46,553 nucleotides of DNA. Origin: Asaia bogorensis. Lineage in GTDB: Bacteria > Pseudomonadota > Alphaproteobacteria > Acetobacterales > Acetobacteraceae. The notes under the pieces are model-generated. The model was not told the origin of the DNA and ran no database searches. It saw nothing but the letters and a program-made list of their open reading frames with translations. Where the stretch lies: positions 1-46,553 of the forward strand of contig CAMBRC010000027.1 in NCBI GenBank assembly GCA_945869965.1, in the 5' to 3' direction. A program made the position numbers and the translations under genes. Below are positions 6,543 to 40,841 of this stretch, piece by piece; positions within the stretch are counted from its first letter, which is position 1, and every line of letters starts with the position of its first letter.

Positions 6543-6679
6543 GATTCTTCTTTTTGTGAACAAAAAGAAGCAAAAAAACTTTACTCATTGGCATGTGACT
6601 CAACTGGCAAGGTCCGTGGTTGCCATTGGCAAACGGATAAAGTTTTTTTGCTTCTTTTTGTCCACAAAAAGAAGATTCT
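6543..6679. repeat. Inverted pair of AT-rich palindromes (site 2)
   Basis: A forward copy (6543-6583) and a reverse copy (6637-6679) face each other across about 50 bases. Each has arms CTTCTTTTT and AAAAAGAAG around a GTGAAC-type centre (GTCCAC in the second), and an A7/T7 tract toward the spacer. The spacer-proximal parts (CTTTACTCATT and ACGGATAAAG) are partly complementary, so the pair can also fold as one long stem flanked by A and U tracts. It lies between a substrate-binding protein gene and permease B of the same operon. Confidence 0.85.
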
Positions 6680-6692
6680 CTCTTCCCCATTC

Positions 6693-8732
6693 TCAAGCTT
6701 TGTAGAACCACGTCGCTGGATGCGAGCTGCCCGGGGTGCGGCAATGCTGGGCGATGCAGACCCGGCCAGGGATGTTGCCCAGGCGGCGGCTGGCCAGGCG
6801 CACGCCCATCAGCGCCGGTGATTGGCCGCAGACGCCGATGTGGAATTGCTGGTCGACCATGATCTTCCAGATTTCCTGGGCGTTCTTGTGGCGCTCGGCT
6901 TCCTGCATGCCGGCCGCCGAGCGGAATAGTTCGAGGGCGCGGATCATGTGGGGGTCGGACGGCTTGGTGCCGCCGGCGCCGTTGGAGGCGTACCAGCGTG
7001 AGTGCTCGATCCCGTAGGCGCCGTTGGCGATGTCCACCGGCAGGGCCCAGGACGGGTAGAGATACAGCAACTCGGTGCCGCCATTGGTCCACACCATGAT
7101 GTGGTGATCGCCTGCCAGCACGCGCTGGAACGCCAAGCCACGCTCCTGTTCCTTGACGTCGCCGAAGATGCCGATCTTGCGCCACTGCTGGGCGATCATC
7201 TGGGCGTGGGCCGGCCAGTCCATGAACGCCTTGACTGCGGTGAGCTGGATGATCAGGCGCTGGCCATTGTCGCTGCGCAGGCGATAGCCCTCGCGATCTT
7301 TCTTGTTCAGGCCAAGGGCGTCGAGCATCTTGTTGGCCTGGGCAACGTCGAGCACCGACCATTTCTTGCGCCATTCCGGGCCGGGGCTTTCGGGCATCGC
7401 TTCGGCCGGAGCGGTGGAACCGGGGGTGCCGAGGCCGAGCCAGAAGGTCTCGTTGAGCTGGTCGCGGTCGATGCCCAGCGAAAGGGCGCGGCGGAAATCG
7501 GCATTGCCCAGCCACTTGCCGATCTCAGGATCAGCGGTGTGGTTCATGTTGATGTGCAGGGTGGTGTCCCCGCCGTTATAGGCGAGGTCGAGATGCACGT
7601 CGTACTTGCCGCGGTCGCGGTTTTCCAGGATCACCGGCAGCTTGGCCAGGTCCATGTGGCGTTCCTGGAGGTCATACTCGCCGGCCATGGCGCGCAGGTT
7701 GGCGACCTCGATGTTTTCGGCCAGGGTCATCACGACCCCGTCGATATAGGGCAGCTGGTTTCCGTCGGTGTCGACCACGTAATAAAACGGGTTGCGCTCC
7801 ATCGCCCAGGTGGGGGTGTTGATCGGGCGGGTGGTCTTCCACGGGCCGAGCGTCGGCAGTTCGGGGTTGAGCTGCCAGTCCTTGCGGACGTGCAGCATGC
7901 GCACCCAGTTGTCGTAGCCGGCGGCGCGCGCCTTGGCGTTGACCTCGGCCTCGGACGAGTATTTCGGCATGAACTGCTTGAGGTAATGGGCGGGGGCATA
8001 GGCGCCGAAGCTGTTGCCGCCCGACTGGCGCACCGCCTGTCCGCCGCCGATCAGGGTGTCGCCGGCGATCATCGAGGGGAAGAGGAAGTATGGGTTCTCG
8101 AACTGGAACTGGATCGTGGTCTCGTCGATCTTTACCAGCTTGCCCTGTTTGCCGCCGGCCGCCATGTCGGCGATCGGGTTCGGCACGATGTCCTTGTTGA
8201 GGTACATGTCCTCGTACCAGAACACGAAGTCGTCGGCGGTGAAGGGGGCACCGTCGGACCACTTCATGCCTTTGCGTAGGAACAAGGTCGTGGTCTTGCC
8301 GTCGGCGCTGAGCTCATAGGCCTTGCAGACCGAGGGGACGATCTTGCTGCCGGTGGGGTCCCAGAACAGCAGCTTGTCGCTGGCCATGATGCGGTTGCCA
8401 TTCTCGCCGTCGGACGGGCCGATGAAGGCGCGGCGCCAGGTGCCGCCGTATTTGCCGGTGCTCTCCAGCGGCTTCATTACCAGCGGTTCGGCGGGCAGGC
8501 GCTGGGCCACGGGCGGGAGCTTGCCGGCCTTGACCAACTCGGCGAGTTGGGGCGCTTCCTTGAACGATGTCGGGATGGTGGTGACCTGGGTGGGGCCTTC
8601 CAGCTTTCCGACCAGGCCGGACTGGTCGAACGTGCTCTTGGCGGTCACGGCCTGGGCCAGTGCGTCCACGGTCGGAGCGGCGGCCGCGGCGAACGCAGCG
8701 GTGGCGCCAAGGAAAGTCCTGCGGGTGGTCAT
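6693..8732 (-). CDS. ABC importer substrate-binding protein, family 5 (importer 1, copy A)
   Basis: A 679-residue periplasmic solute-binding protein. The N-terminus MTTRRTFLGATAAFAAA has a twin-arginine-like signal followed by a hydrophobic stretch and an LAQ cleavage region. The SBP_bac_5 fold is indicated by YGGTWRRAF, LRKGMKWSDGAPFTADDFVFWYEDM (given here only as a landmark), the AERNP-like WAMERNPFYY, LPYIDGVVM, and FRRALSLGIDRDQLNE. It is longer than typical DppA (about 535 residues) and ends with a conserved Cys-containing tail, CIAQHCRTPGSSHPATW. It is about 70% identical by eye to the next gene upstream, pointing to a tandem duplication. It supplies substrate to permeases 5534-6523 and 4428-5537. 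Confidence 0.9.
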   Translation of the reverse strand: MTTRRTFLGATAAFAAAAAPTVDALAQAVTAKSTFDQSGLVGKLEGPTQVTTIPTSFKEAPQLAELVKAGKLPPVAQRLPAEPLVMKPLESTGKYGGTWRRAFIGPSDGENGNRIMASDKLLFWDPTGSKIVPSVCKAYELSADGKTTTLFLRKGMKWSDGAPFTADDFVFWYEDMYLNKDIVPNPIADMAAGGKQGKLVKIDETTIQFQFENPYFLFPSMIAGDTLIGGGQAVRQSGGNSFGAYAPAHYLKQFMPKYSSEAEVNAKARAAGYDNWVRMLHVRKDWQLNPELPTLGPWKTTRPINTPTWAMERNPFYYVVDTDGNQLPYIDGVVMTLAENIEVANLRAMAGEYDLQERHMDLAKLPVILENRDRGKYDVHLDLAYNGGDTTLHINMNHTADPEIGKWLGNADFRRALSLGIDRDQLNETFWLGLGTPGSTAPAEAMPESPGPEWRKKWSVLDVAQANKMLDALGLNKKDREGYRLRSDNGQRLIIQLTAVKAFMDWPAHAQMIAQQWRKIGIFGDVKEQERGLAFQRVLAGDHHIMVWTNGGTELLYLYPSWALPVDIANGAYGIEHSRWYASNGAGGTKPSDPHMIRALELFRSAAGMQEAERHKNAQEIWKIMVDQQFHIGVCGQSPALMGVRLASRRLGNIPGRVCIAQHCRTPGSSHPATWFYKA

Positions 8733-8844
8733 GTCGGCTGCCTCCGGGCGTTGCTGGGTCCGTGGCCTCTTTGACGGTGGCCACGGTGAGTTGGATCTAC
8801 GCTAGAGCAAGAGCGGGCGCGGGGCCAGTAGGGGAACAAAAAAT

Positions 8845-8963
8845 GTTCTTTTTTGAAAAAAAGAACCAAAAAACTTTTATCCATTGGATCGGTGCCAGTC
8901 GCGAAGGCTCGGCCCAAATGGATAAAGTCTTTTTGCTTCTTTTTCTTCAGAAAAAGAAGATTC
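8845..8963. repeat. Inverted pair of AT-rich palindromes (site 3)
   Basis: The forward copy at 8845-8880 is of the GTTC-type (GTTCTTTTTTGAAAAAAAGAAC, given as arms GTTCTTTTTT and AAAAAAGAAC). The reverse copy at 8923-8963 is of the CTTC-type with inner centre CTTCAG. The parts next to the spacer are TTTATCCATTGG and CCAAATGGATAAAG, an evident inverted repeat. It lies between the two substrate-binding protein genes. Confidence 0.85.
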
Positions 8964-8975
8964 TTTCGCTCCTTG

Positions 8976-11006
8976 TCAGCTCTTGAAGTACCAAGTCGTC
9001 GGGTGCGAGCTGCCCGGGGTGCGGCAGTGCTGGGCGATGCAGACGCGCTGGGGGATGTTGCCCAGCCGGCGGTTGACCATGCGCACCCCGGCGAAGGCGG
9101 GCGACTGGCCGCAGATGCCGATGCTGAACTGCTGGTCGATGACGATCTTCCAGATTTCCTGGGCCAGCTTGTTGCGCTCGGGCTCGCCCAGGGTGGTGGC
9201 GGAGCGGAACATCTCCAGCGCCTTCAGCACGTGCGGGTCGCTGGGCTTGGTGCCGATGGTGCCGTTGGAGGCATACCAGCGCGCCAGCTCGATCCCGAGC
9301 ACGCCGTTGCCGATATCGACCGGCAGGACGAAATGCGGATAGAGGAACAACTGCTCCGAGCCGGTGTTGCCGAAGACGAAGATGTGGTGCTCGCCAGCCA
9401 GTACGCGCTGGAACGCCAGGGCGCGCTCCTGGTCGCGGACATCGGCGAAGATGCCGATCTTCTTCCATTGCTGGGCCAGCATGTGCGAATGGGCCGGCCA
9501 GTCGAGGAACGCCTTGGTCACCGTGAGCTGGATCACCAGGCGCTGGCCGTTATCCGCGCGCAGGCGATAGCCCTCGCGGTCTTTTTTGGCCAGGCCGAGC
9601 CCGTCGAGCATCTTGTTGGCCAAGGCGAGATCCAGCACCGACCATTTCTTGCGCCATTCCGGGCCGGGGTTTTCCGGCATCACCTCGGCGGGGGCGGTGG
9701 AGCCAGGGGTGGCCAGGCCGAGCCAGAAGGTCTCGTTGAGTTGGTCGCGGTCGATGCCGAGGGAGAGTGCGCGGCGGAAATCGGCGGTGGCGAGCAGGCG
9801 GCCGATTTCGGCATCGCTGGTGAGGTTCAGGTTGAAGTGCAGTGCGGTATCCGCGCCGTTGAAGGCGAGGTCGAGATGCAGGTCGTAATTGCCACGGTCG
9901 CGGTTCTCCAGGATCACTGGCAGCTTGGCCAGGTCGATATGGCGCTCCTGCATGTCGAACTCGCCGGCCATGGCGCGCAGGTTCACGATCTCGGTGTTGT
10001 CGGCCAGCGTCATCACCACGGTGTCGATATAGGGCAGCTGGTTGCCGGCGGTGTCGACGGCGTAAAAGTATGGGTTGCGCTCCAGCGCCCAGACCGGCGA
10101 GTTGATCGGGCGGGTGGTCTTCCAAGGCCCGAGCGTGGGTAGTTCGGTGTTGATTGCCCAGTTGTGGCGGACCTTGAGCATGCGGACCCAGTTGTCGAAG
10201 CCGGCCTCGCGGGCGCGCCGGTTGACCTCGGCTTCGGAGGAGTATTTCGGCAGGAATTGCCTGAGGTAGTGGGCCGGGGCATAGGCGCCGAACGTGCCGC
10301 TGCCGGATTGCCGGGCGGCCTGGCCGCCGCCGATCAGGGTGTCGCCGGCCAGCATCGAGGGGAACAGGAGGTGGGGGGCGTCGAATTCGAAGCGGATGGT
10401 GGTGGCGTCGACTTTCACCATCCGGCCGGGCTTGCCGCCGGCTGACAAGTCGGGGATGGGCGACGGCACGATGTCCTTGTTGCTGTAAAGGTCGTCGAAC
10501 CAAAACATGAAGTCGTCGGCGGTGAAGGGGGCGCCGTCGCTCCATTTCATGCCGCGGCGCAGGAACAGCGTGGTGGTGCGACCGTCGGGGGAGATCTCAA
10601 AGGCGCGGGCCACCGCGGGTGCGATCTTGCTGCCGGTCAGGTCCCAGAACAGCGGCTTGTCCGAGGCCACGAGCCGGTTGCCGTTCTCGCCATCGCCCGG
10701 GCCGATGAAGGCGCGGCGCCAGGTGCCGCCATAGCGGCCGATGGCGTGCAGCGGCTGGATCACCAGGGGCTCGGACGGCACGCGTTCGGTTACTGGGGGG
10801 AGTTTGCCGGCTTTGACCAATTCGGCCAGTTGCGGCGCTTCCTGGAATTTGGCTGGCATCGTGGTCGCCAGCGTCGCGCCTTCCAGCTTGCCGACCAGGC
10901 CGGATTGGCCGAATTGCCCACTTGCCTGCGCGCGGGCCAGGTCAGGCCGCAGCAGGGCAGCCGCAAGGCCGAGGCTGCCGCCGATGACGTGTCGACGCGT
11001 GGTCAT
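8976..11006 (-). CDS. ABC importer substrate-binding protein, family 5 (importer 1, copy B)
   Basis: A 676-residue periplasmic solute-binding protein, paralogous to 6693-8732 and first gene of the importer 1 operon. It starts MTTRRHVIGGSLGLAAALL with a twin-arginine-like signal and an ARAQ cleavage region. Shared landmarks are FGQSGLVGKLEG, YGGTWRRAFIGPGDGENGN, DTLIGGGQAARQSG, WALERNPYFYAV, RALSLGIDRDQLNETFWLG, and the Cys tail CIAQHCRTPGSSHPTTW. The ATG at 11006 is chosen over the upstream ATG at 11096 because the signal peptide begins there and a purine-rich GGAGGAACC site precedes it. Two receptors for one permease suggests a broadened or differently regulated substrate range. Confidence 0.9.
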   Translation of the reverse strand: MTTRRHVIGGSLGLAAALLRPDLARAQASGQFGQSGLVGKLEGATLATTMPAKFQEAPQLAELVKAGKLPPVTERVPSEPLVIQPLHAIGRYGGTWRRAFIGPGDGENGNRLVASDKPLFWDLTGSKIAPAVARAFEISPDGRTTTLFLRRGMKWSDGAPFTADDFMFWFDDLYSNKDIVPSPIPDLSAGGKPGRMVKVDATTIRFEFDAPHLLFPSMLAGDTLIGGGQAARQSGSGTFGAYAPAHYLRQFLPKYSSEAEVNRRAREAGFDNWVRMLKVRHNWAINTELPTLGPWKTTRPINSPVWALERNPYFYAVDTAGNQLPYIDTVVMTLADNTEIVNLRAMAGEFDMQERHIDLAKLPVILENRDRGNYDLHLDLAFNGADTALHFNLNLTSDAEIGRLLATADFRRALSLGIDRDQLNETFWLGLATPGSTAPAEVMPENPGPEWRKKWSVLDLALANKMLDGLGLAKKDREGYRLRADNGQRLVIQLTVTKAFLDWPAHSHMLAQQWKKIGIFADVRDQERALAFQRVLAGEHHIFVFGNTGSEQLFLYPHFVLPVDIGNGVLGIELARWYASNGTIGTKPSDPHVLKALEMFRSATTLGEPERNKLAQEIWKIVIDQQFSIGICGQSPAFAGVRMVNRRLGNIPQRVCIAQHCRTPGSSHPTTWYFKS

Positions 11007-11099
11007 GGTTTGGTTCCTCCACGGGTCCGGCCTTGTCGTCGGCCGATTGGCAACGAGCCTACGGCCCGGCGCCACGCCATGTCCAGGAACGCACACCTC

Positions 11100-11828
11100 T
11101 CAGGCGGCGGCGAGCGCCCGCCACGCCAACACCATCAGCATTGCCGCGTTGCCCGTCAGCAGCCAGGGCGCGGCGCGATTGACCGCGCCTTGCCAGCGCC
11201 GCGCCGCTGCATGGCCCAGCAGGCCGACCGCGATCAATGCCGGCACCGTGCCGAGTCCGAAGGCCAGCATCGCCAGCCCGCCGATGATCGGCCCGGCCGA
11301 TGCCGCCGCCGCCAGCGCCGCATAGACCATGCCGCAGGGCAGCAAGCCGAGCGCCAAACCCAACGGCAGGCCGCGCAACTTGCCGATGCCGCCAAACCGC
11401 GCTGCCAGTGCCGTGATCCCGGGGTTGGTCCGCCGGCCGCCGGCCATGGCCGGTTGAAACCGCCGCAGTGCCAGCACCAGGAACCCGGCCGCCGCCAGGG
11501 CCAGTAGCACTGCGGGCAGTAGATGTGGCAGCCGCAGGCCGCCGAGCCAGCCGGCCCCGGCGCCGAGCGCCGCATAGGTCGCCAGCCGCCCGGCATGATA
11601 CGGCAGCAGCAGCGAGCCGCGCAGCCGCGCGCCCTGGCACATCCGCGCCGCCGGCAGCCGTGCCATGCCATCGGCGACCTGGCCCAGCACGAACGGCCCG
11701 CACATCGCGGCGCAATGCACCACGCTGCCGGCCAGCCCGGCCAGCAACAGCGCCGGCACCAGGAACAACCCGCGCTCGGCCTGTCCCGGCCCGCAGATCG
11801 CGGCCAGGGCGTCGAACAGGCCGTTCAC
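11100..11828 (-). CDS. DsbD_2/TauE-SafE-like membrane protein next to the cbb3 operon
   Basis: A 242-residue integral membrane protein with six or so predicted helices. It carries the motif HCAAMCGPF near the end of its first helix and a Pro/Cys-containing GLALGLLPCGMVYAAL later. Paired helices with Cys-Gly-Pro and Pro-Cys-Gly turns fit the DsbD_2 (cytochrome c biogenesis, 'sulfite exporter TauE/SafE') group. Members of this group are often found beside cco genes and are thought to help copper or thiol handling for oxidase maturation. The GTG at 11828 is taken as start because the conserved first helix begins there; the frame upstream looks non-coding and includes an 18-bp tandem repeat. It is divergent from the cco cluster and may share its FNR-type control. 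Confidence 0.75.
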   Translation of the reverse strand: MNGLFDALAAICGPGQAERGLFLVPALLLAGLAGSVVHCAAMCGPFVLGQVADGMARLPAARMCQGARLRGSLLLPYHAGRLATYAALGAGAGWLGGLRLPHLLPAVLLALAAAGFLVLALRRFQPAMAGGRRTNPGITALAARFGGIGKLRGLPLGLALGLLPCGMVYAALAAAASAGPIIGGLAMLAFGLGTVPALIAVGLLGHAAARRWQGAVNRAAPWLLTGNAAMLMVLAWRALAAA

Positions 11829-11843
11829 GTTGGGGCCGCCAGA

Positions 11844-11879
11844 AGGGGAGCGAGGGACACTAGGGGAGCGAGGGACATT
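11844..11879. repeat. 18-bp tandem repeat, two units
   Basis: AGGGGAGCGAGGGACACT (11844-11861) is followed immediately by AGGGGAGCGAGGGACATT (11862-11879), differing at one base. It lies in the divergent region between the DsbD_2-like gene and the cco cluster, just upstream of the FNR-type box. Confidence 0.8.
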
Positions 11880-11904
11880 TCGTCCATTGAACCGAAGCCG
11901 CCGT

Positions 11905-11936: not shown

Positions 11937-12006
11937 GCAGCAAGACGGGCACCGTTGGACCATGCCGGGAATGGTGCCGGCCACACGCGACGGGGAATCG
12001 ATTCGG

Positions 12007-13708: not shown

Positions 13709-13713
13709 CGACG

Positions 13714-20028: not shown

Positions 20029-20119
20029 GTTCTTTTTTGAAAAAAAGAACCAAAAAACTTTCATCCATTTAGCAAACGAATAAAGTCTTTTTGCTTCTTT
20101 TTCTTCAGAAAAAGAAGAA
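20029..20119. repeat. Inverted pair of AT-rich palindromes between convergent genes (site 4)
   Basis: The forward copy at 20029-20062 has arms GTTCTTTTTT and AAAAAAGAAC with a CAAAAAACTTTC tail. The reverse copy at 20081-20119 has a TAAAGTCTTTTTG tail then arms CTTCTTTTT and AAAAAGAAG around a TTCA centre. The spacer is short (about 18 bases) and contains CATCCATTT and ACGAATAAAG. It sits exactly between the stops of ccoS and the convergent galM, the expected place for a bidirectional terminator. Confidence 0.85.
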
Positions 20120-22896: not shown

Positions 22897-22901
22897 CAAG
22901 G

Positions 22902-22943
22902 CGAGGGGCTCTGCCCCTCGACCCCGCTGGGGCGTCGCCCCAG
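22902..22943. terminator. Two adjacent GC-rich hairpins after the monooxygenase gene
   Basis: CGAGGGGCTCTGCCCCTCG at 22902-22920 is followed by CTGGGGCGTCGCCCCAG at 22927-22943. They start six bases after the monooxygenase stop. There is no following T-run, so they are a candidate rho-assisted terminator, mRNA-stabilising structure or dispersed GC-rich repeat. The rest of 22944-23097 holds nothing recognisable besides the ribosome site of the next gene. Confidence 0.55.
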
Positions 22944-23097
22944 GCCCCAGCTCTTGATGGGCCATTCCAGCGGCAGTCCGACCTTGCTTGATCTCATGTG
23001 GGTTGGCTAACATTCGGGCAACTCGGTCTGCGGCCCGCAAATTCGGGATGTCGGATCAGGAGCGGTGAAAACGCCGCGACCCGGAGGGAACAGGGCC

Positions 23098-24777
23098 ATG
23101 CTGCCTCGTACATCGAGCTACGCCCACAGCACTTCGTCGACGCCGCTGCTCAATGCCACGCTGGGCCAAGCTCTCGACGCCGCTGCGGCATCCTGGCCGG
23201 ACCGCGAGGCGGTGGTGGTACGCGACCAGGGCGTCCGGCTGACCTTTGCCGCCTTGCGGACCGAGGTCGATCGCCTCGCCGCAGGCCTCGTGGCACTCGG
23301 GCTGCAACCGGGCGACCGGGTCGGGCTGTGGTCGCCCAACCGGCTGGAATGGGTAGTCACCCAATACGCCACCGCCAAGGCCGGCTTGATCCTGGTGAAC
23401 CTCAATCCCGGCTACCGCGTGGGCGAACTGGAATACGCGCTCAACAAGGTCGAATGCCGCGCGCTGGTCATGGCCGACCGTTTCAAGACCAGCGACTATA
23501 TCGGCATCCTGCGCAGCCTGGCGCCGGAACTGGCGCAGTGTGCGCCAGGGACCCTTCGCGCGGCACGGCTGCCGCATCTGTCCACCGTGATCCACATGGA
23601 CAGCACCGACGAGCCGGGCATGCTCACCTTCGCCGCCGTCGGCGCGATGGGTGGCGCGGCTGAGCGCGCGCGGCTCGCCGAACTGGCGGCAACGCTACAG
23701 CCCGACGACCCGATCAACATCCAGTTCACCTCCGGCACGACCGGATCGCCCAAGGCGGCGACCCTGTCGCATCATGGGCTGGTCAATAACGCGCTGTTCT
23801 TCGCCGAGTGCGCGGGGTTCAAGGGCGGCGAGCGGTTCTGCAATCCGCTGCCGCTGTACCATGTCGGCGGCATGGTGCTCGGCAGCATCGCCGGCGTCCT
23901 GAAGGGCATCACCCTGGTCTATCTCGGCGAGGCCTTCGACCCCATCGCCGCACTCGAGGCCGTTCAGGACGAGCACTGCGACGCGCTGGGCGGCGTGCCG
24001 ACCATGTTCGTCGCCATGCTCAACCATCCGGCATTCGCAAAATACGACACCACCACGCTGCGCCTCGGCTTCATCGGCGGCTCGCCATGCCCGGCGGACA
24101 TCATGCGGCGCATCATGTCCGAGATGCACATCGCCGGCATAACCATCGTCTATGGCATGACCGAATTGTCCGGCAGCAGCATGCAGACCGCGCTCGACGA
24201 CACCATCGAACGCCGGGTTGCCACCATCGGCCGGGTCCAGCCCCACATGGAAGTCAAGATCGTCGACCCCGACGGCCGCACGGTGGCCTGCGGGATACAG
24301 GGTGAAATCTGTTTCCGCGGCCACATGGTGATGCGCGGCTATTGGAATGACGAGGCGCAGACCCGTGCCGCCATCGATGCAGCGCGCTGGCTCCATTCCG
24401 GCGACCTCGGGGTCATGGACCCAGACGGCTACATCTCGATCACCGGGCGCAGCAAGGACATGGTGATCCGCGGCGGCGAGAACATCTATCCGCGCGAGGT
24501 GGAGGAGTTCCTGTTCGGCCACCCCGCGGTAGCCGATGTCCAGGTGTTCGGTATTCCCGATGCGAAATACGGCGAAGAACTGTGCGCCTGGGTGCGCCTG
24601 CGCCCCGGCACGGCGGCCACCGAGGAGGAGATCCGCGGTTTCTGCCGCGAGCGGATCACCCATTTCAAGATCCCCCGGCACGTCCGCTTTGTCGAAGCCT
24701 TCCCCATGACCGTGACCGGCAAGGTGCAGAAATTCATCATGCGGGAACAGATGGCCGCCGAACTGAAGGCGATCTGA
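23098..24777 (+). CDS. AMP-forming acyl-CoA synthetase
   Basis: A 559-residue acyl-adenylate-forming ligase that activates a carboxylic acid with ATP and CoA. Motifs: the P-loop FTSGTTGSPKAATLSHHGLV (A3), YGMTELSG (A5), HSGDLGVMDPDGYISITGRS (A7/A8), RGGENIYPREVEEFL and the C-terminal catalytic Lys in TGKVQKF (A10). Length is typical of medium/long-chain fatty acyl-CoA ligases (FadD/AtoE-like). The start at 23098 has a GGAGGGAA ribosome site 7 bases ahead; a GTG at 23065 is the alternative. It is convergent with the second importer operon, with only seven bases between their stops. Chain-length specificity cannot be read. Confidence 0.9.
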   Translation: MLPRTSSYAHSTSSTPLLNATLGQALDAAAASWPDREAVVVRDQGVRLTFAALRTEVDRLAAGLVALGLQPGDRVGLWSPNRLEWVVTQYATAKAGLILVNLNPGYRVGELEYALNKVECRALVMADRFKTSDYIGILRSLAPELAQCAPGTLRAARLPHLSTVIHMDSTDEPGMLTFAAVGAMGGAAERARLAELAATLQPDDPINIQFTSGTTGSPKAATLSHHGLVNNALFFAECAGFKGGERFCNPLPLYHVGGMVLGSIAGVLKGITLVYLGEAFDPIAALEAVQDEHCDALGGVPTMFVAMLNHPAFAKYDTTTLRLGFIGGSPCPADIMRRIMSEMHIAGITIVYGMTELSGSSMQTALDDTIERRVATIGRVQPHMEVKIVDPDGRTVACGIQGEICFRGHMVMRGYWNDEAQTRAAIDAARWLHSGDLGVMDPDGYISITGRSKDMVIRGGENIYPREVEEFLFGHPAVADVQVFGIPDAKYGEELCAWVRLRPGTAATEEEIRGFCRERITHFKIPRHVRFVEAFPMTVTGKVQKFIMREQMAAELKAI

Positions 24778-28509: not shown

Positions 28510-28541
28510 GTGGTCCCCTAGTAAAGCGAGGCGCGCGGAGG

Positions 28542-28574
28542 ATAAAAGTTTTTGCTTCTTTTTTCAAAAAGAAG
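28542..28574. repeat. Single AT-rich palindrome (site 5)
   Basis: ATAAAAGTTTTTG is followed by CTTCTTTTTTCAAAAAGAAG, a reverse-orientation copy with a shortened loop. No partner copy is visible nearby. It lies between the substrate-binding protein gene and permease B of importer 2, the same operon position as the pair at 6543-6679. Confidence 0.8.
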
Positions 28575-28606
28575 CGCTTGTTCTCTTATCCTCCAGGCAC
28601 GCGGGA

Positions 28607-31857: not shown

Positions 31858-32090
31858 GATTCTTCTTTCTGTGAACAAAAAGAAGCAAAAAAACTTTATT
31901 CGATGGCGTGTTCCGCGAAGTTCGGGGTGGAAAGGTGTGGGCCCTTCGCTGCGCACAGGATGATGAAAGAGGGGGAGCCAGCAAGGCAGAGCCCCCCTCC
32001 GGCTCCCCCCGCCCAAGCGCGAGGGGAGAGAAGGTTTTTTTTTGTGAATGAAGTTTTTTTGCTTCTTTTTGTTCACAAAAAGAAGATTCT
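31858..32090. repeat. Inverted pair of AT-rich palindromes with long spacer (site 6)
   Basis: The forward copy at 31858-31900 and reverse copy at 32051-32090 carry arms CTTCTTTCT or CTTCTTTTT and AAAAAGAAG around GTGAAC or GTTCAC. The spacer is about 150 bases, the longest in the window, and includes a GC-rich inverted segment (GGGGGAGCC with GGCTCCCCCC). This fills the gene-free stretch 31797-32098 between the yibQ-like gene and paralogue 2; nothing coding is supported there. Confidence 0.85.
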
Positions 32091-34817: not shown

Positions 34818-34948
34818 TCTTCTTTTTGTGAACAAAAAGAAGCAAAAAAACTTTATCCGATTGGCGTGGGGCGAAAAGCCCGGCGCCGGGTTGGTGGGCG
34901 AATGAATGAAGTTTTTTTGCTTCTTTTTGTTCACAAAAAGAAGATTCT
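34818..34948. repeat. Inverted pair of AT-rich palindromes (site 7)
   Basis: The forward copy at 34818-34855 and the reverse copy at 34909-34948 both have arms CTTCTTTTT and AAAAAGAAG with a GTGAAC or GTTCAC centre and A7 or T7 tracts facing the spacer. The spacer is about 53 bases and begins TATCCGATTGGCG. The pair lies between envC and ctpA, both read on the minus strand. Confidence 0.85.
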
Positions 34949-34972
34949 TGATGCCGCTTGCCTTCCATGCGG

Positions 34973-36217
34973 TCAACTCCGCCCACGCAGGAACGGGGCC
35001 GGGTTGACCGCCTGTCCGGAGCGGCGGAGTTCGACGTAGAGCGCCGGGCGGCCGCCGCCGGTGCGCGGGTCCCAGCCGGGCATGACGCCGACCGGGGTGC
35101 CGGAGGTGACGCGTTGGCCGACGGTGAGGTCGATGCGTTCGAAGCCGGCCAGGACGAAATGGTAGCCGCCGCCGCAATCGACGATGACCAGTTGGCCGAA
35201 GCTGCGGAACGGGCCGGCGAAGACGATGCGGCCGGCGCAGGGGGCGAAGACGCGGGCGCGGGGGGCGGCGTGGTACGACAGGCCGGTGGAGGGGCCGCTG
35301 TCGGTGGCATCGCCGAAGCCGCGCACCAGGGTGCCGGAGACGGGGGCGGCCAAGGGGGGGGAGTCGCTGGCGGCGGGCATGGTGATGCCTGGGCCGGCGG
35401 GGGCGGCGAGTTCGGCCTGGCGGGTGCGGGCGGCGGCGGCGGCGGTGGCCTGGCGGCGGCGGGCGGCTTCTTCGGCTTCGCGGCGGGCGCGGGCTTCGGC
35501 GGCGCGGTGTTCGGCCTCGATCTGGGCGATGGCGGATTTGAGGCCTTCGGCGCGGGCGGCTTCGGCGGCGGCGCGGCGGGCGGCGCGGGTGGCTTCGTCT
35601 TCGGCGGCACGGCCTTCGGCGCGGGTGGTGCGGAGTTGTTCGTCCAGGGCTTCGGCGGCCTGGGCCTGGGCGGCCTGGGCTTCGGCGAGGCGGGGGAAGG
35701 CGGCGTCCATTTCGGCCTGGAGGCGAGCGATTTCGGCCTGTTCGGCGCGCAGGGCCTGAGCTTCGTGCTCCAGGGTGCGGACCAGGCCGCCGAGGACCAG
35801 GGCGCCGCGGACGGCTTGCTCCGGGGGGACGGGGACGGCGAGGAGGGTTTCGGTGGGGAACAAAGCGAGGCGTTCGATCAGGGGGAGCAGCGGGGTGATG
35901 TCGGCGGCGCGGACGGCCAGGCGGGTTTCCGCCATGCGGCGGCGTTCGGCGAGGGCTTCGATGCGGGTGGCGGCTACGGTTGTTGCTTGTTCGGCGTCGC
36001 GCAGGCGGGACAGGATCTGGGTTTGCTGGGCGGCGAGTTTTTGGGCGTCGGTGCGGGCGGCGGTGGCGCGTTGGGCTGCTTCGCGCTGGGCGGCGAGTTC
36101 TTCGCGGCGGGATTGCTCGGCTTCGCGGAGCTGGTCGTGCCTGGGTTGGGCCGCGGCGGGGGCAGCGAGGAGGAGGGCGATGAGGAGCCCCGGGGCCAGG
36201 GTGGTGAGGCGGATCAC
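34973..36217 (-). CDS. envC: Murein hydrolase activator, EnvC-like
   Basis: A 414-residue periplasmic protein: a signal peptide (LAPGLLIALLLAAPAAAQ), a long coiled coil (about 20-270, rich in E-A-A-R repeats), and a C-terminal LytM/M23-like domain (about 290-410). In that domain the zinc ligands of active M23 peptidases are not conserved: LSYHAAPRARVFAP replaces the H-x-x-x-D motif and LYVELR replaces H-x-H. It is therefore more likely an amidase activator than an enzyme. This matches EnvC, which activates cell-division amidases. The start is GTG at 36217, overlapping the gpmI stop as GTGA. Confidence 0.9.
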   Translation of the reverse strand: MIRLTTLAPGLLIALLLAAPAAAQPRHDQLREAEQSRREELAAQREAAQRATAARTDAQKLAAQQTQILSRLRDAEQATTVAATRIEALAERRRMAETRLAVRAADITPLLPLIERLALFPTETLLAVPVPPEQAVRGALVLGGLVRTLEHEAQALRAEQAEIARLQAEMDAAFPRLAEAQAAQAQAAEALDEQLRTTRAEGRAAEDEATRAARRAAAEAARAEGLKSAIAQIEAEHRAAEARARREAEEAARRRQATAAAAARTRQAELAAPAGPGITMPAASDSPPLAAPVSGTLVRGFGDATDSGPSTGLSYHAAPRARVFAPCAGRIVFAGPFRSFGQLVIVDCGGGYHFVLAGFERIDLTVGQRVTSGTPVGVMPGWDPRTGGGRPALYVELRRSGQAVNPAPFLRGRS

Positions 36218-37746
36218 GTGGTGGCGAGCAGGGACCGGCCGGTCATCTCGGCGGGGGCCGGGAGTCCGATGAGGTCGAGCAAGGTGGGGGCGATGTCGGC
36301 GAGGCGGCCGGTTTGCATTGGGCGGTTGGTGGGGCCGAAGAGCAGGACGGGGACGGGGTTGGTGGTGTGGGCGGTGTGCGGGGCGCCGGTGATGGGGTCG
36401 CGCATCAGTTCGGCGTTGCCGTGGTCGGCGGTGACCAGGAGCCAGCCGTGCCGGGCGGCGATGGCGGCCTGGAGGCGGCCGAGGCCGGTGTCGACGGCTT
36501 CGACGGCGCGGATGGCGGCGGACAGGCTGCCGGTGTGGCCGACCATGTCGGCGTTGGCGTAGTTGAGGACGAGGAGGGAGTACTGGGCGGTTTCGATGGC
36601 GCGGATGGCGGCGTCGGTGAGTTCGGGGGCGGACATCTCGGGCTGCAGGTCGTAGGTGGCGACGTTTGGCGAGGGGATCATGACGCGGTCTTCGCCGGGG
36701 TTGGGGGTCTCGACGCCGCCGTTGAAGAAGTAGGTGACGTGGGGGTATTTTTCGGTTTCGGCGAGGCGGATTTGCTGGAGGCCGGCGGCGGCGACGACCT
36801 GGCCGAGGAGGTGGTCCATGGTTTGCGGCGCGAACAGGGCGGTCATGAGGGGGGCGAGGGCGTCGCTGTAGCGGGTCATGCCGGCGGCGGCGGCGAAACT
36901 GATGGCGCGCGGGCGGGGGAAGCCGGTGAAGGCGGGGTCAAGCAGGGCTGCGAAGATTTCGCGCACGCGGTCAGCGCGGAAGTTGGAGCACAGCAGGGCG
37001 TCGCCGTCGCGCATGCCTTGGTAGTCGGCGATCACGGCGGGTTCGACGAATTCGTCGGTTTTGCCGGCGGCGTAGGCTTGTTGGAGGGCTTCGGCGGGGG
37101 TGGTGGCGCGGGGGGCGTCGGCTTCGGCCATGGCGCGGTAGGCGCGGGCGACGCGGTCCCAGCGGTTGTCGCGGTCCATGGCGAAGTAGCGGCCGGTGAC
37201 GGTGGCGATGCGGGCGCTGGGGGGGAGGCTGGCTGCGAGTTTGGCGAGGTCGGATTGGGCGGATTGCGGGGGGGTGTCGCGGCCGTCGAGCCAGGCGTGG
37301 ATGGCGACCGGGATGCCCTGGGCGTCGAGGACGTGGGCGAGGGCGATGGTGTGGTCGAGGTGGGAGTGGACGCCGCCTTCGGAGGCGAGGCCGAGGAGGT
37401 GGCAGGTGCCGCCGGTGGATTTCAGGGTGGCGATCAGGTCGGAGAGGGCGGGCAGGGTGGCGAGCGAGCCGTCCTGGCAGGCGAGGTTGATGCGCGGGAG
37501 GTCCTGCATGACGACGCGGCCGGCGCCGATATTGAGGTGGCCGACTTCGGAATTGCCCATCTGGCCGTCCGGCAGGCCGACATCGAGGCCGGAGGTGCGC
37601 AGGAAGGCGTGCGGGCAGGATTGCCACAAGGCGTTGAAATTGGGCGTGTTTGCCTGGAGGACTGCGTTGTCCGCACGGTCTTCGCGCCAGCCCCAGCCGT
37701 CGAGGATCACCAACATGACAGGAGGGGGCATGACGGGTGGGCGCAT
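36214..37746 (-). CDS. gpmI: 2,3-bisphosphoglycerate-independent phosphoglycerate mutase
   Basis: A 510-residue cytoplasmic enzyme interconverting 3- and 2-phosphoglycerate in glycolysis. It has the alkaline-phosphatase-like core. VILDGWGWRED carries the first metal Asp, GQMGNSEVGHLNIGAG the phosphorylated Ser, and WLDGRDTPPQSA, KYPHVTYFFNGG, NYANADMVGHTG, VTADHGNAE and HTAHTTNPVPV the remaining metal ligands. The start at 37746 (MRPPVMPPPVMLV) gives the usual length; 37731 is the alternative. It heads the envelope part of the operon and is coupled to envC. Confidence 0.96.
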   Translation of the reverse strand: MRPPVMPPPVMLVILDGWGWREDRADNAVLQANTPNFNALWQSCPHAFLRTSGLDVGLPDGQMGNSEVGHLNIGAGRVVMQDLPRINLACQDGSLATLPALSDLIATLKSTGGTCHLLGLASEGGVHSHLDHTIALAHVLDAQGIPVAIHAWLDGRDTPPQSAQSDLAKLAASLPPSARIATVTGRYFAMDRDNRWDRVARAYRAMAEADAPRATTPAEALQQAYAAGKTDEFVEPAVIADYQGMRDGDALLCSNFRADRVREIFAALLDPAFTGFPRPRAISFAAAAGMTRYSDALAPLMTALFAPQTMDHLLGQVVAAAGLQQIRLAETEKYPHVTYFFNGGVETPNPGEDRVMIPSPNVATYDLQPEMSAPELTDAAIRAIETAQYSLLVLNYANADMVGHTGSLSAAIRAVEAVDTGLGRLQAAIAARHGWLLVTADHGNAELMRDPITGAPHTAHTTNPVPVLLFGPTNRPMQTGRLADIAPTLLDLIGLPAPAEMTGRSLLATT

Positions 37747-37832
37747 GAGGGGTTCCCGGGGACGAGTCGTTCGATTCGCAAGATATACGGGCATTGCGAT
37801 GAATCTGAGAGATATTCGTCCGGGACTCGGGG

Positions 37833-38300
37833 TTACGACTCGCGCGGGCCACGGTGGTAGGGGTGGCCGGCGAGGATCGATTGGGCGCGGAAAAGCTGTT
37901 CGGCGAGCATCGCGCGGGCGAGCATATGGGGCCAGACCAGAGGGCCGAGGGAGAGGCGGTGGGCGGCTTGCGCGACCAGCGTGGGGTCGAGGCCTTCGGC
38001 GCCGCCGATGAGGAAGCAGGGGGTTCGGCCGGTGGCGGTCCATTGGGCCAGGAGGCGGGCGAGGCCGGCGGAGTCCGGCGCGTGGCCGGTGCGGTCGAGG
38101 GCGACGGTGAGGGCGGCGGGCGGGATGCGGGCGCGCAGGGCTTCGGCCTCGCGGCGCATGATTTCGACCGGCGCGCCGCGGCCGTCGGCGATTTCGACGA
38201 TGCGTAGCGCCGGGCGCAGGCGGGCGGCATAGCGGGCGACCAGCGCCGCTTCGGGCGAGGTGCCGATGCGGCCGACCGCCAGCAGCAGCCACTCGCCCAA
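37833..38300 (-). CDS. rlmH: 23S rRNA (pseudouridine-1915 N3) methyltransferase
   Basis: A 155-residue SPOUT-family methyltransferase that methylates pseudouridine 1915 of 23S rRNA on the assembled 70S ribosome. Family elements visible are LLLAVGRI at the N-terminus, ALDRTGHAPDSAGLARLL, the SAM-binding knot glycines in CFLIGGAEGLD, and the C-terminal PHMLARAMLAEQLFRAQSI followed by AGHPYHR. Length is exactly that of the family. It lies 20 bases after rsfS, a common adjacent pair. Confidence 0.95.
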   Translation of the reverse strand: MGEWLLLAVGRIGTSPEAALVARYAARLRPALRIVEIADGRGAPVEIMRREAEALRARIPPAALTVALDRTGHAPDSAGLARLLAQWTATGRTPCFLIGGAEGLDPTLVAQAAHRLSLGPLVWPHMLARAMLAEQLFRAQSILAGHPYHRGPRES

Positions 38301-38319
38301 GCGCGGCCTCGCCGGCCGC

Positions 38320-38913
38320 TCAGCCAGGCTCGGGCTCGTCGGCGACCGTTAGAGGCTCGGGGGGCGTTTCGTCCAGGTCGGCGCCCCACATGCGCTCGAT
38401 GCCGTAGAGGGCGCGGGCCTCGGCCTTGAACAGGTGGATGATGATGTCGCCGGCGTCGATCAGGACCCAGTCGGAGCCCGAGGCGCCCTCGATCTTGATC
38501 CGCTTGAGGCCGACTTCGGCTAGTTTTTGCTCGAGGTGGATCGCCATGGCGGAGATTTGCCGGTCGGCGATGCCGGTGGCGACGACCATGCGGTCGGCGA
38601 AGGAGGCGCGGCCTTGCAGGTCCAGCGCGATCACGTTTTCGGCCTTGTCGTCGTCCAGGCTGGCGAGGATCACTGCTTGCAACTGGTCGAGGCGGGCAGA
38701 GTCGGTCTTCACCACAGGCTTGGCGCGGCGGATCTTCGCGGGACCGGCGGCGGCGGCTTTCTTGCGCGCGGTGCCCGGGGGGGTGGAAATCGCGGGGAGG
38801 AGGATGGTGGCGGTCGCGGTCGTGCGGGGGCTGGCGCGTTTGCGCGGGGCGGCGGCCGATGGACCAGTCGGGGGCGTGGCGGGGGGGGCAGGCGGCTTGC
38901 GGGCGATGGTCAT
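38320..38913 (-). CDS. rsfS: Ribosomal silencing factor RsfS with long N-terminal extension
   Basis: A 197-residue protein. The C-terminal part (from about residue 70) is the RsfS/Iojap domain: LQAVILASLDDDKAENVIAL (partly), DLQGRASFADRMVVATG, RQISAMAIHLEQKL, GSDWVLIDAGDIIIHLF (split), and ALYGIERMWG. It binds L14 of the large subunit and blocks subunit joining during starvation. The first 65 residues are Pro/Ala/Lys/Arg-rich and unlike the compact family norm of 105-130 residues. The ATG at 38913 overlaps the nadD stop (ATGA), which supports the long form. Confidence 0.92.
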   Translation of the reverse strand: MTIARKPPAPPATPPTGPSAAAPRKRASPRTTATATILLPAISTPPGTARKKAAAAGPAKIRRAKPVVKTDSARLDQLQAVILASLDDDKAENVIALDLQGRASFADRMVVATGIADRQISAMAIHLEQKLAEVGLKRIKIEGASGSDWVLIDAGDIIIHLFKAEARALYGIERMWGADLDETPPEPLTVADEPEPG

Positions 38914-39515
38914 GAACTCCGATTGAGGCGGATGGCAGTCGCCGAGGTGGCGTTTTGCGCCGTCGGCAGGAATACCCAGCGTGGGGTTGGCAGCCCGGCC
39001 AGTGTCGCGGCGGCATGTGCTGGCAGGCGGTGCGCGGCCAGGCGGTGGGCGGCCTGGCTGGCCAGCGCGCGGTGATTGTAGGTAGGGCGGGGCAGGACGG
39101 CAAATGCAACCTGGGCGGCGATGGCGCGCCAGCGTCGCCAGCGCGGCAATTGCACCAGGTTGTCGGCACCCATCAGCCAGACGAAATGGGCGCGGGGGAA
39201 GCGTTGGAGCAGGGTTTGCAGCGTGTCGACGGTGTAGCGCGTGCCCAGGCGGGTTTCGATATCGGTGGCGACGATGCGGCGGCCATCGGCGATGCGGCGC
39301 GCCGAGGCGAGGCGGGCGGCGGGGGCGGCCATGTCGTGGGCTGGCTTCAGGGGGTTGCCGGGCGAGACCATCAGCCAGACCTGGTGCAGACGCAGGCGGC
39401 GACGCGCCAGCCGGGCGATGTGCAGGTGGCCGGCATGGGCGGGGTTGAACGAGCCGCCGAGCAGGCCGATGCGGACGCGCCGGCGGTCGCCCCATTCGGG
39501 TGGGTCATCACTCAG
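38910..39515 (-). CDS. nadD: Nicotinate-nucleotide adenylyltransferase
   Basis: A 201-residue enzyme transferring AMP to nicotinate mononucleotide in NAD synthesis. The nucleotidyltransferase signature is IGLLGGSFNPAHAGHLHIA, including the HxGH-type AHAGH. Also seen are WLMVSPGNPLK, FVWLMGADNLVQLPRW and the C-terminal substitute of the family ISST-x-x-R-motif, NATSATAIR. No ATG, GTG or TTG lies in frame between the conserved beginning and the upstream proA stop. The best start is CTG at 39515, which overlaps the proA stop as CTGA, implying re-initiation by coupled ribosomes. A small sequence error is the alternative. Confidence 0.88.
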   Translation of the reverse strand: MSDDPPEWGDRRRVRIGLLGGSFNPAHAGHLHIARLARRRLRLHQVWLMVSPGNPLKPAHDMAAPAARLASARRIADGRRIVATDIETRLGTRYTVDTLQTLLQRFPRAHFVWLMGADNLVQLPRWRRWRAIAAQVAFAVLPRPTYNHRALASQAAHRLAAHRLPAHAAATLAGLPTPRWVFLPTAQNATSATAIRLNRSS

Positions 39516-40783
39516 GGCCGGATCTGCCCGGTACCGCGGACGAGGTAGCGGAAGGTGGTGAGCTGTTCGAGGCCGATCGGGCCGCGGGCGTGCATGCGGC
39601 CGGTGGCGATGCCGATCTCGGCGCCGAAGCCGAATTCGCCGCCGTCGCAGAACTGGGTGGAGGCGTTCCACATCGCCACGGCGGAATCGACGCTGTTGAG
39701 GAATGTGGCGGCGGCGGCGGCGTCTTCGGTGACGATGGCGTCGGTGTGCGAACTGCCGTGGTGGCGGATGTGGTTCAGGGCGCCGTCGAGGTTGTCGACG
39801 ACGGCGACGGTGAGGATGGCGTCGAGCCATTCGCGGTCGAAGTCGCCTTTTTCGGTGGGCGGAAGGTCGGGGACGATGGCACGGGCGCGCGGGCCGGCGC
39901 GGAAGTTGCAGCCCAGCGCGCGCAGGTCGGCGACCAGCAGGGGCAGCAGGGAGGGGGCGATGGCGGCGTCGATCAGCAGCACCTCGGTGGCGCCGCAGAC
40001 GCCGGTGCGGCGCATCTTGGCATTGGCGAGGATGGCGCGGGCCATGGCGGGGTCGGCGGCGGTGTGGATGTAGGTGTGGCAGAGGCCCTCGGCGTGGGCG
40101 AGGACGGGGACACGGGCTTCCTGTTGCACCCGTTCGACCAGGGATTTGCCGCCGCGCGGGATGATGAGGTCGATCTGGCCGGCGGCGCCGAGCATGGCGG
40201 CGACGTAGGCGCGGTCGGTGGCGGGGGGGATTTGCACGGCGGCTTCCGGCACGCCGGCTTTTTGCAGCCCTTCGGTCACTGCCGCGTGGATGGCGCGGGC
40301 ACTATGAAAACTGTCGGAGCCGCCGCGCAGGATGACGGCGTTGCCGGCCTTGAGGCAGAGGCCGGCGGCGTCGGCGCCGACATTGGGGCGGCTTTCGTAG
40401 ATCATACCGATGACGCCGAGGGGCTGGGGGATGCGTTGGATGCGCAGGCCGTTGGGCTGGGTCCAGTCGGCGAGCACGCGGGCCAGCGGGTCGGGCAGGG
40501 CGGCGATGTCGTCCAGGCCCTGGGCCATGCTTTCGATGCGGGCGGGGGTGAGCGCCAGTCGGTCGCGGAAGGCTTTCGTCCCGCCAGCGGAATCGAACGC
40601 GGCGAGGTCGAGCGCGTTGGCGGCCTCGATGTCGGTCGCATGGGCGCGGATGGCGGTGGCGGCGGCGTGCAGGGCGGCGTTGCGGGCGTCGGCCGGCATT
40701 GTGGCGAGCGTGTTCGAGGCGGCACGAGCGCGGGTGGCGGCCTCATGCGTCCAGGTGGTAGCGGGGTTTGTCGCCATGTCCAT
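39512..40783 (-). CDS. proA: Gamma-glutamyl phosphate reductase
   Basis: A 423-residue cytoplasmic enzyme reducing gamma-glutamyl phosphate to glutamate semialdehyde with NADPH, the second step of proline synthesis. It is an aldehyde-dehydrogenase-fold protein: PLGVIGMIYESRPNV and LKAGNAVILRGGSDSFHS for the cofactor domain, IPRGGKSL, the catalytic Cys in RRTGVCGATEVLL, and WNASTQFCDGGEFGFGAEI (split). Length is typical (about 420). The ATG at 40783 has GGGAG at a good distance; MATNP at 40777 is also possible. It follows proB after a single AT-rich palindrome. Confidence 0.96.
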   Translation of the reverse strand: MDMATNPATTWTHEAATRARAASNTLATMPADARNAALHAAATAIRAHATDIEAANALDLAAFDSAGGTKAFRDRLALTPARIESMAQGLDDIAALPDPLARVLADWTQPNGLRIQRIPQPLGVIGMIYESRPNVGADAAGLCLKAGNAVILRGGSDSFHSARAIHAAVTEGLQKAGVPEAAVQIPPATDRAYVAAMLGAAGQIDLIIPRGGKSLVERVQQEARVPVLAHAEGLCHTYIHTAADPAMARAILANAKMRRTGVCGATEVLLIDAAIAPSLLPLLVADLRALGCNFRAGPRARAIVPDLPPTEKGDFDREWLDAILTVAVVDNLDGALNHIRHHGSSHTDAIVTEDAAAAATFLNSVDSAVAMWNASTQFCDGGEFGFGAEIGIATGRMHARGPIGLEQLTTFRYLVRGTGQIRP

Positions 40784-40806
40784 CGATGGTCTCCCAAGCA
40801 AATGGG

Positions 40807-40841
40807 TAAAAGTTTTTTGGTTCTTTTTTTCAAAAAAGAAC
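40807..40841. repeat. Single AT-rich palindrome, GTTC-type (site 8)
   Basis: TAAAAGTTTTTTG is followed by arms GTTCTTTTTTT and AAAAAAGAAC. It is a reverse-orientation copy of the GTTC subfamily with no visible partner, lying in the 71-base gap between proB and proA. Confidence 0.8.

What the first reader, a model, noticed from the sequence alone, without database searches (positions are those of the whole stretch)
6543..40841. Family of AT-rich palindromes placed only between genes, mostly as inverted pairs
At least twelve well-preserved copies (6543, 6637, 8845, 8923, 20029, 20081, 28542, 31858, 32051, 34818, 34909, 40807), plus degenerate ones near 187-407, share a hairpin with a fixed tail C-A6/7-CTTT. 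Five sites hold a forward and a reverse copy facing each other over 18 to 150 bases; two sites have one copy. No copy falls inside a supported gene. In the pairs, the tail and spacer edge (for example CTTTTATCCATTGG with CCAAATGGATAAAG) are complementary and bounded by A and T runs. The pair thus looks like a bidirectional intrinsic terminator enclosed by two extra AT hairpins. The layout is like paired REP/BIME elements, but AT-rich in a GC-rich genome.
Basis: partly seen in the sequence, partly recalled or inferred. Interest (0 to 1): 0.75.

Follow-up and report, generated by a model that had tools for sequence, protein, structure and literature searches.

The report
Mobile AT-hairpin pairs behind genes
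The window holds members of a large family of short AT-rich hairpins that sit in facing pairs just after genes; a pair behaves like a tiny copy-able DNA unit found in many bacteria of one family and in viral and plasmid DNA, yet the transposase that spreads similar repeats elsewhere is missing from most carriers.

Summary
The window has 12 well-preserved copies, plus a 13th slightly degenerate one, of a hairpin with tail C-A6/7-CTTT. The whole genome gives 745 hits to a 21-base probe, the reversed probe 4. In 846 kb sampled, 3 of 195 copies lie in predicted genes although 87% is coding. Copies favour gene ends: 25 of 55 convergent, 70 of 252 tandem, 8 of 94 divergent spacers. In pairs the hairpin starts about 9-10 nt behind the stop codon.

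New: the facing pair is the unit. In one IMG/VR contig two pairs are identical over 121 bases, hairpin to hairpin, with unrelated flanks. Units lie between phage structural genes and on Pseudoroseomonas cervicalis plasmids. A same-genus genome lacks 5 of the 7 window sites. Copy number is patchy inside genera. This resembles REPINs, but 21 of 26 copy-rich genomes, this one included, show no Y1 (REP-type) transposase.

The terminator reading is plausible but unproven: left and right tails do not covary. Verdict: a RAYT-less, AT-rich, REPIN-like mobile family probably acting at transcript 3' ends.

The parts
188..221 (+). Slightly degenerate hairpin + tail A7CTTT (13th copy); the remnant near 355-389 is more degenerate
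6547..6674 (.). Inward pair, types B and B (left hairpin 6547-6570 +, right hairpin 6651-6674 -), between a solute-binding-protein ORF (6693-8732, -, SBP_bac_5) and a permease ORF (5534-6523, -, BPD_transp_1)
   Evidence: the site holds a GC-rich repeat in G008/G004 and only 18 bases, stop codon included, in G002
8845..8959 (.). Inward pair, types A and C (left hairpin 8845-8866 +, right 8936-8959 -), between two SBP_bac_5 ORFs; present in G006, absent in G005, G008, G001, G002
   Evidence: 79-82% identical units on P. cervicalis plasmids
20029..20117 (.). Inward pair, types A and C, filling a convergent spacer; G005 has a pair at the same site with a different interior and a type B right hairpin
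28540..28576 (-). Single copy, type D, with a remnant (GGATAA..GAACAAGCGC) suggesting a lost outward partner
31862..32085 (.). Inward pair, types B and B, enclosing a GC-rich repeat (GGGGGGAGCCGG type)
   Evidence: G005, G001, G007 have 17-20 bases there, stop codon included
34819..34943 (.). Inward pair, types B and B; absent in G005, G001, G007, G004; left copy only in G006
40808..40841 (-). Single copy, type A, in a junction that is 16-17 bases long (stop codon included) in G005, G007, G001

Best explanation
The copies belong to one family of short non-coding mobile units. A unit, mostly 95-180 bases, is two AT-rich hairpins facing each other, each followed inward by C-A6/7-CTTT, around a short, often GC-rich interior. 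Shown here: the family is multi-copy, extragenic and tied to stop codons; in one viral contig a pair with its interior exists twice, identical from hairpin edge to hairpin edge at unrelated sites; units sit in viral and plasmid DNA; presence at a given site differs between species. Inferred: the hairpin with its tail is the end recognised by an unidentified copying enzyme acting in trans (or by a recombination process), much as RAYT is thought to recognise REPINs, and phages and plasmids carry units between species. Also inferred: units persist mainly just behind stop codons because there they do no harm, and often serve as bidirectional intrinsic terminators or transcript 3' ends (A-tract, inner stem, U-tract, T-rich hairpin).
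For: Copy number and extragenic location. Gene-end bias: convergent against divergent p=3e-7, repeated in 95 loci of other genomes (2 of 252 in genes; convergent 43/57, tandem 63/182, divergent 11/71; p=5e-12; those loci were picked for holding a copy). Unit copying: L222 units at 5542 and 11096 identical over 121 bases, flanks unrelated, no target duplication seen by eye; the third unit at 9102 is related. Interiors of units in one viral locus are more alike than between viral loci (0.73, n=16, against 0.61, n=699; shuffled 0.56). Sharp unit size in viral loci: 36 of 48 inner gaps are 42-51. Hairpin types are non-randomly paired (A-C 15 against 4.4 expected, A-A 1 against 5.4). Hairpin arms compensate: 121 of 162 distinct sequences perfect in the four distal pairs, 57.6 expected when arms are dealt at random. 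Site differences: 5 of 7 window sites lack a copy in G005; patchy inside genera, e.g. g120 with 234, 130 and 191 against 0, 0 and 1. Terminator side: inner segment MFE -18.2 against -14.3 shuffled, 45 of 70 with 5 or more arm pairs; near mutual exclusion with a GC-rich CCAGGGGC repeat in convergent and tandem spacers (1 shared, 8.4 expected, p=4e-4).
Against: No enzyme was found and no target duplication seen. Between G005 and G001/G003/G007 (about 93-96% identical DNA) all three pair sites that could be compared were shared, so movement is not frequent there. The two identical L222 units are one case in one contig. In the 95 GTDB loci, units of one locus are no more alike in the interior than units of different loci (0.61, n=22, against 0.60, n=2169; shuffled 0.55), and in this genome the mean is only 0.63 against 0.56 shuffled. 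Tail covariation test negative and wobble direction not favoured; 17 of 70 inner segments have no arm pairs. The direction of single copies differs between data sets. Inference: a strong terminator between co-directional late phage genes would be costly, which speaks against full termination there.
Confidence: 0.6

Rival explanations
1. They are ordinary bidirectional intrinsic terminators, kept by selection and inherited vertically; likeness between copies comes from constraint and occasional gene conversion.
For: Position behind stop codons, depletion from divergent spacers, A-tract/stem/U-tract layout, exclusion with another gene-end repeat, Microviridae copy right after a GC-rich inverted repeat with the T-tract downstream of it on the annotated strand, sites shared between close relatives.
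Against: The hairpin beyond the T-run is nearly invariant (83 of 187 identical), which a terminator does not need; empty sites in relatives and patchiness inside genera; identical unit at two sites; no tail covariation.
Confidence: 0.2
2. Intercistronic RNA hairpins that stabilise or process the upstream mRNA, as REP elements are reported to do at malE-malF (recalled), rather than terminate transcription.
For: Pair between a solute-binding-protein ORF and a permease ORF (6547-6674); a different hairpin repeat at the same site in G008 and G004; 39 tandem spacers of the viral loci hold exactly one inward pair, among structural genes in the contigs examined; 14 of 17 tandem singles in this genome have no U-tract in sense.
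Against: Bidirectional symmetry and U-tracts would be unnecessary; the hairpins are weak, about -8 to -9 kcal/mol; convergent spacers are preferred over tandem ones; viral tandem singles mostly do have the T-tract in sense (8 of 10).
Confidence: 0.3
3. True REPIN/BIME elements spread by a REP-associated Y1 transposase.
For: Inverted doublets with conserved ends and variable spacer, extragenic, hundreds of copies; copies lie within about 1 kb of Y1 genes in G027 and G127.
Against: No PF01797 match in 21 of 26 copy-rich genomes, this one included; several are incomplete drafts. No fixed GTAG/CGTC tag. 6 of 8 Y1 loci have no copy in the fetched flanks. The G027 copy follows the stop of an anthranilate-synthase gene like any other copy, and that Y1 gene appears to have another repeat in its own flanks (flanks read by eye).
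Confidence: 0.05
4. DNA-uptake or protein-binding signal sequences.
For: Hundreds of near-identical short motifs, often inverted, between genes, as described for DUS in Haemophilus and Pasteurella (PMC1590033, passages).
Against: Nearly absent from genes (3 of 195), while uptake sequences are also studied inside genes (PMC2346458, title and start of abstract only); bound to stop codons; each word carries its own perfect hairpin.
Confidence: 0.04

Closest known systems
REPINs (REP doublets forming hairpins) of Pseudomonas and E. coli
   Same: Two conserved palindromic ends in inverted order, variable spacer able to fold, extragenic, hundreds of copies, pair as replicative unit, singles as remnants (PMC3116915, abstract and passages)
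   Different: AT-rich hairpins in a GC-rich genome, no GTAG tag, no RAYT in most copy-rich genomes tested, hairpin a few nt behind stop codons, units inside viral contigs
GTAG- and CGTC-tagged palindromic repeats
   Same: Short extragenic palindromes with an unpaired conserved tail
   Different: Neither tag; that survey says CGTC repeats are missing from Acetobacteraceae (PMC3733652, passages)
Inverted DNA uptake sequence pairs forming stem-loops in Haemophilus and Pasteurella
   Same: Repeated word, inverted pairs, stem-loops between genes (PMC1590033, passages)
   Different: Here each word carries its own perfect hairpin and the pair is copied as a unit
MITEs and bidirectional intrinsic terminators
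   Same: Terminal inverted repeats with non-coding interior; A-tract, stem, T-tract (general knowledge)
   Different: No target duplication seen, no parent transposon found, extra hairpins outside the terminator

Membership tests
REP/REPIN | Extragenic palindrome in high copy, arranged as inverted doublets | tested here: met
REP/REPIN | Conserved ends, less conserved spacer, pair as copied unit | tested here: met
   (exact unit copying seen in one viral contig; interiors in GTDB loci show no such signal)
REP/REPIN | GTAG (or CGTC) tag at one end of the hairpin | tested here: not met
   outer flank is purine-rich with no fixed tetranucleotide; tail is C-A6/7-CTTT
REP/REPIN | RAYT (Y1 transposase) in the genome, flanked by the repeat | tested here: not met
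   none in G000; 5 of 26 copy-rich genomes have a match; 2 of 8 Y1 loci have a copy in the fetched flanks
Bidirectional intrinsic terminator | Placement at gene 3' ends, convergent spacers preferred | tested here: met
Bidirectional intrinsic terminator | Stable stem directly followed by a U-tract on both strands | tested here: inconclusive
   45 of 70 with 5 or more arm pairs, 17 of 70 with none; L222 units lack it (by eye)
Bidirectional intrinsic terminator | Stem kept by compensatory change between the two tails | tested here: not met
   within-pair identity at the three variable sites 0.438, shuffled 0.497 (67 of 73 pairs)
Bidirectional intrinsic terminator | Transcript 3' ends at the T-run | not testable with these tools
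   no RNA data
MITE | Target-site duplication | tested here: inconclusive
   none seen by eye at the L222 units or at the empty site of 40808-40841
MITE | Parent transposon with the same ends | tested here: inconclusive
   no gene enclosed by neighbouring facing copies in 846 kb; the one long interior found in other loci, L161, was printed but not analysed
DNA uptake sequence | Copies also inside genes | tested here: inconclusive
   3 of 195 here; PMC1590033 says most DUS are intergenic, PMC2346458 deals with intragenic ones (listing)
Any Rfam family | Match at gathering score in the window | tested here: not met
   0 matches

The most novel reading that the evidence does not exclude
A phage-travelling mobile terminator: a non-coding unit whose ends are hairpins, copied in trans by an unknown enzyme that is not a RAYT, inserted just behind stop codons of phage and host genes, so that 3' ends of genes across a bacterial family are repeatedly rewritten by one selfish element.
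Probability: 0.28. Interest if true: 0.78.

Novelty: new variant of a known kind. Interest (0 to 1): 0.57.

Why it matters
REPIN-type repeats are usually explained by RAYT transposases. A family with the same architecture, hundreds of copies per genome, copies in viral and plasmid DNA and mostly no RAYT asks what else can copy such units. Its tight link to stop codons makes it a natural test of whether selfish repeats supply bacterial transcription terminators. At least one named carrier exists (P. cervicalis, with units on two plasmids), so both questions can be tested.

Tried and rejected
RAYT (PF01797) as mobiliser: rejected as general explanation. The G027 Y1 gene next to a copy looked promising, but the copy follows the stop of an anthranilate-synthase gene like other copies, and the Y1 gene seems to have a different repeat in its own flanks (flanks read by eye). 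Tail-tail covariation and strand-specific wobble as proof of an RNA stem: negative. Autonomous parent element between facing copies: none in 846 kb. Looser matches at G005 13761 and 63806 were judged false when aligned. Consensus terminator scan of window 1-40000: 15 and 22 sites against 12.1 and 12.1 expected; it picks up five outer hairpins but allows loops of 3-8 only, so it cannot see the inner stems. Rfam: nothing. Literature: 8 searches listed no description of this family; the library is open-access PMC only. Matches of the 6545-6684 pair to plasmids of Lactococcus, Enterococcus and others (listed ones E 0.1-0.4) are treated as chance AT-rich hairpins.

Mended on re-check: distance behind the stop codon is a median of 9 (tandem) and 10 (convergent) nt here, 7-8 in other loci; junction lengths in relatives include the stop codon; two Y1 loci, not one, have a copy nearby; the flat GTDB interior result and the differing direction of singles were added; confidence lowered from 0.62 to 0.60 and the novel case from 0.30 to 0.28 for these two.
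Full report
WHAT IS THERE. The window contains hairpins followed by C-A6/7-CTTT. All twelve listed copies were found, and a thirteenth, slightly degenerate, at 188-221. Five sites are inward pairs with inner gaps of 54, 45, 19, 151 and 52 bases; two are singles. The window is contig C27 of an unnamed 4.735 Mb genome that has 745 hits to a 21-base probe with up to 3 mismatches, against 4 for the reversed probe.

SAMPLE STATISTICS. I took 40 stretches of 20 kb plus the window (846,553 bases) and a simple codon-usage gene finder written for this purpose. There are 195 copies; 3 have their midpoint in a predicted gene though 87% is coding. Among spacers of at least 50 bases, copies occur in 25 of 55 convergent, 70 of 252 tandem and 8 of 94 divergent ones (convergent against divergent p=3e-7). 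There are 73 inward pairs closer than 300 bases. Taking the hairpin edge as 20 bases outside the matched core, it lies -2 to 30 nt behind the stop codon on 32 of 44 sides of convergent pairs (median 10) and in 41 of 47 tandem pairs (median 9). In tandem spacers with a single copy, 14 of 17 have the hairpin on the side of the upstream gene (p=0.013); this bias is not repeated in other loci (6 of 10 GTDB, 2 of 10 viral). In convergent spacers the pair leaves at most 40 further bases in 12 of 22 cases.

ANATOMY. Of 187 parsed hairpins (195 copies), 83 are identical type B, 48 type A, 13 type D and 12 type C. Over several sources, 121 of 162 distinct sequences are perfectly complementary in the four distal pairs, against 57.6 expected when arms are dealt at random, and the first pair switches between C-G and G-C. 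Behind CTTT the consensus is YATYCRTTNG; in types A and B the strongly variable sites vary mainly C/T or A/G. Interiors vary in sequence and some contain other dispersed repeats. Types pair non-randomly: A-C 15 (4.4 expected), A-A 1 (5.4), B-C 1 (8.0) among 73 pairs, 11 of which include an unclassified hairpin. Pairs with one A and one non-A hairpin have a median gap of 45 (n=39), others 72.5 (n=34) (p=1e-7). Inference: short-gap pairs avoid being perfect long palindromes, which are unstable. Whole units are 96-180 bases in 70 of 73 cases.

TERMINATOR TESTS. For: position, the A-tract/stem/T-tract layout, inner segment MFE -18.2 against -14.3 shuffled (median z -1.6), and 45 of 70 pairs with at least 5 arm pairs. 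Against or neutral: 17 of 70 have no arm pairs; left and right tails are not more alike within a pair than between pairs (0.438 against 0.497 at the three variable sites, 67 of 73 pairs), and mismatches are not biased to G-U wobble on the transcribed strand (39 wobble, 54 mismatch). In convergent and tandem spacers this repeat and a GC-rich CCAGGGGC repeat almost exclude each other (1 shared, 8.4 expected, p=4e-4), which suggests that they can replace each other. At the spacer between the permease and solute-binding-protein ORFs (6523-6693), relatives carry either this repeat, with one degenerate arm (G005, G001, G003), the GC-rich one (G008, G004) or only 18 bases, stop codon included (G002).

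GAIN AND LOSS. Syntenic spacers were compared with same-genus genomes. G005 has a copy at 2 of the 7 window sites. The single at 40808-40841 sits in a junction of 16-17 bases (stop codon included) in G005, G007 and G001; the pair at 31862-32085 in one of 17-20 bases. The pair at 8845-8959 is shared with G006 but absent in G005, G008, G001 and G002. At the convergent site, G005 has a pair with another interior. That these are gains in the window's lineage is inferred. Between G005 and G001/G003/G007, about 93-96% identical, all three pair sites that could be compared were shared, so turnover is visible at genus depth, not between near relatives.

DISTRIBUTION. All 8 other genus members searched have 418-603 hits; 27 other family members in that call have 0 to 382. 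In 299 genomes of the family (up to 2 mismatches) 93 have a match, some with only one or two, the highest outside the genus 592; differences inside genera are large: g120 has 234, 130 and 191 in three species and 0, 0 and 1 in others. In the 95 loci the same rules hold: 2 of 252 in genes, convergent 43/57, tandem 63/182, divergent 11/71, median 7 nt from the upstream stop in tandem spacers; they were chosen for holding a copy.

PHAGES AND PLASMIDS. An IMG/VR scan gave 37 stretches with 119 copies, 48 inward pairs, 36 of them with gaps of 42-51; 1 of 119 lies in a predicted gene, and 53 of 151 tandem spacers hold a copy. Eight of the 37 were looked at gene by gene. Of 20 neighbouring proteins from four of them, 16 matched PHROGs families, among them terminase, portal, major head and tail sheath. 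In L222 one unit lies between terminase and portal, one upstream of the major head gene and one upstream of the sheath gene; those at 5542 and 11096 are identical over 121 bases from hairpin to hairpin, including the interior, with unrelated flanks and no target duplication seen by eye; the third is related. Interiors within one viral locus are more alike than between loci (0.73, n=16, against 0.61, n=699; some loci are the same phage sampled twice, which raises the between value). In GTDB loci there is no such difference (0.61 against 0.60). By database annotation, a unit fills the convergent spacer between two oxidoreductase genes on P. cervicalis plasmid pL11-B (9 and 2 bases from the stops), and another lies between two co-directional genes on pL11-A; they are 82% and 79% identical to the window unit. 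A Microviridae record (marked unverified, from cattle blood) has one type A copy behind a GC-rich inverted repeat.

MOBILISER. PF01797 has no match in this genome. Of 26 genomes with at least 40 hits (G000; 11; 14), 5 have a match and 21 none; of 15 copy-poor genomes, 2 have one. Several are incomplete drafts. Of 8 Y1 loci, 2 have a copy in the fetched flanks: G027, behind an anthranilate-synthase stop, and G127, about 1 kb away in a genome with 234 hits. No gene lies between neighbouring facing copies in the sample. The copying agent is unknown.

COMPARISON. REPINs (PMC3116915, abstract and passages read) share the inverted doublet, conserved ends, foldable variable spacer and the pair as unit. 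GTAG/CGTC tags (PMC3733652, passages) and RAYT are not met. So it works like a REPIN in arrangement but is not filed as one. The malE-malF and long-palindrome remarks are recalled, not looked up.

CONCLUSION. The best reading is a REPIN-like, RAYT-less family of mobile AT-hairpin pairs that settle behind stop codons in Acetobacteraceae and in viral contigs, and probably act at transcript 3' ends. Mobility as a unit is shown directly in one viral contig and indirectly elsewhere; the terminator function and the enzyme are inferred or unknown.

Noticed in passing
window 22897-23214 and G008/G004 spacers orthologous to 6523-6693: A second, GC-rich family of facing hairpins (CCAGGGGC..GCCCCTGG ACCCC) occupies gene ends that lack the AT family; 84 matches in 846 kb counted on both strands of a palindrome, so about half as many places, 6 matches in predicted genes.
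   Followed up: partly
window 31900-32050; L031-L050 and L186-L205: Other dispersed repeats lie inside or beside the AT units: GGGGGGAGCCGGAGGGGGGCTC (14 matches) and CATCCTGAGC..AGCGAAGGA..CCACGC (10 matches), none in predicted genes.
   Followed up: partly
L048:8485-8553, L049:16-85, L050:16404-16469, L046:4064-4127: Back-to-back outward pairs (types D and A, often joined by GCGC) look like the junction that head-to-tail or circular units would give.
   Followed up: no
L253 (MG945182.1) about 1200-1235: A single type A copy in an unverified Microviridae genome from cattle blood, directly behind a GC-rich inverted repeat.
   Followed up: no
L206 (G027) 1426-1989: A Y1-transposase gene whose flanks share ATGCGGGACC-type words, apparently its own REP family (by eye).
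   Followed up: no
G006 contig C23 (L181/L052): At the site of 34819-34943 the related genome keeps the left copy but lacks the right hairpin and T-run next to an AAG repeat, an apparent hairpin deletion.
   Followed up: no
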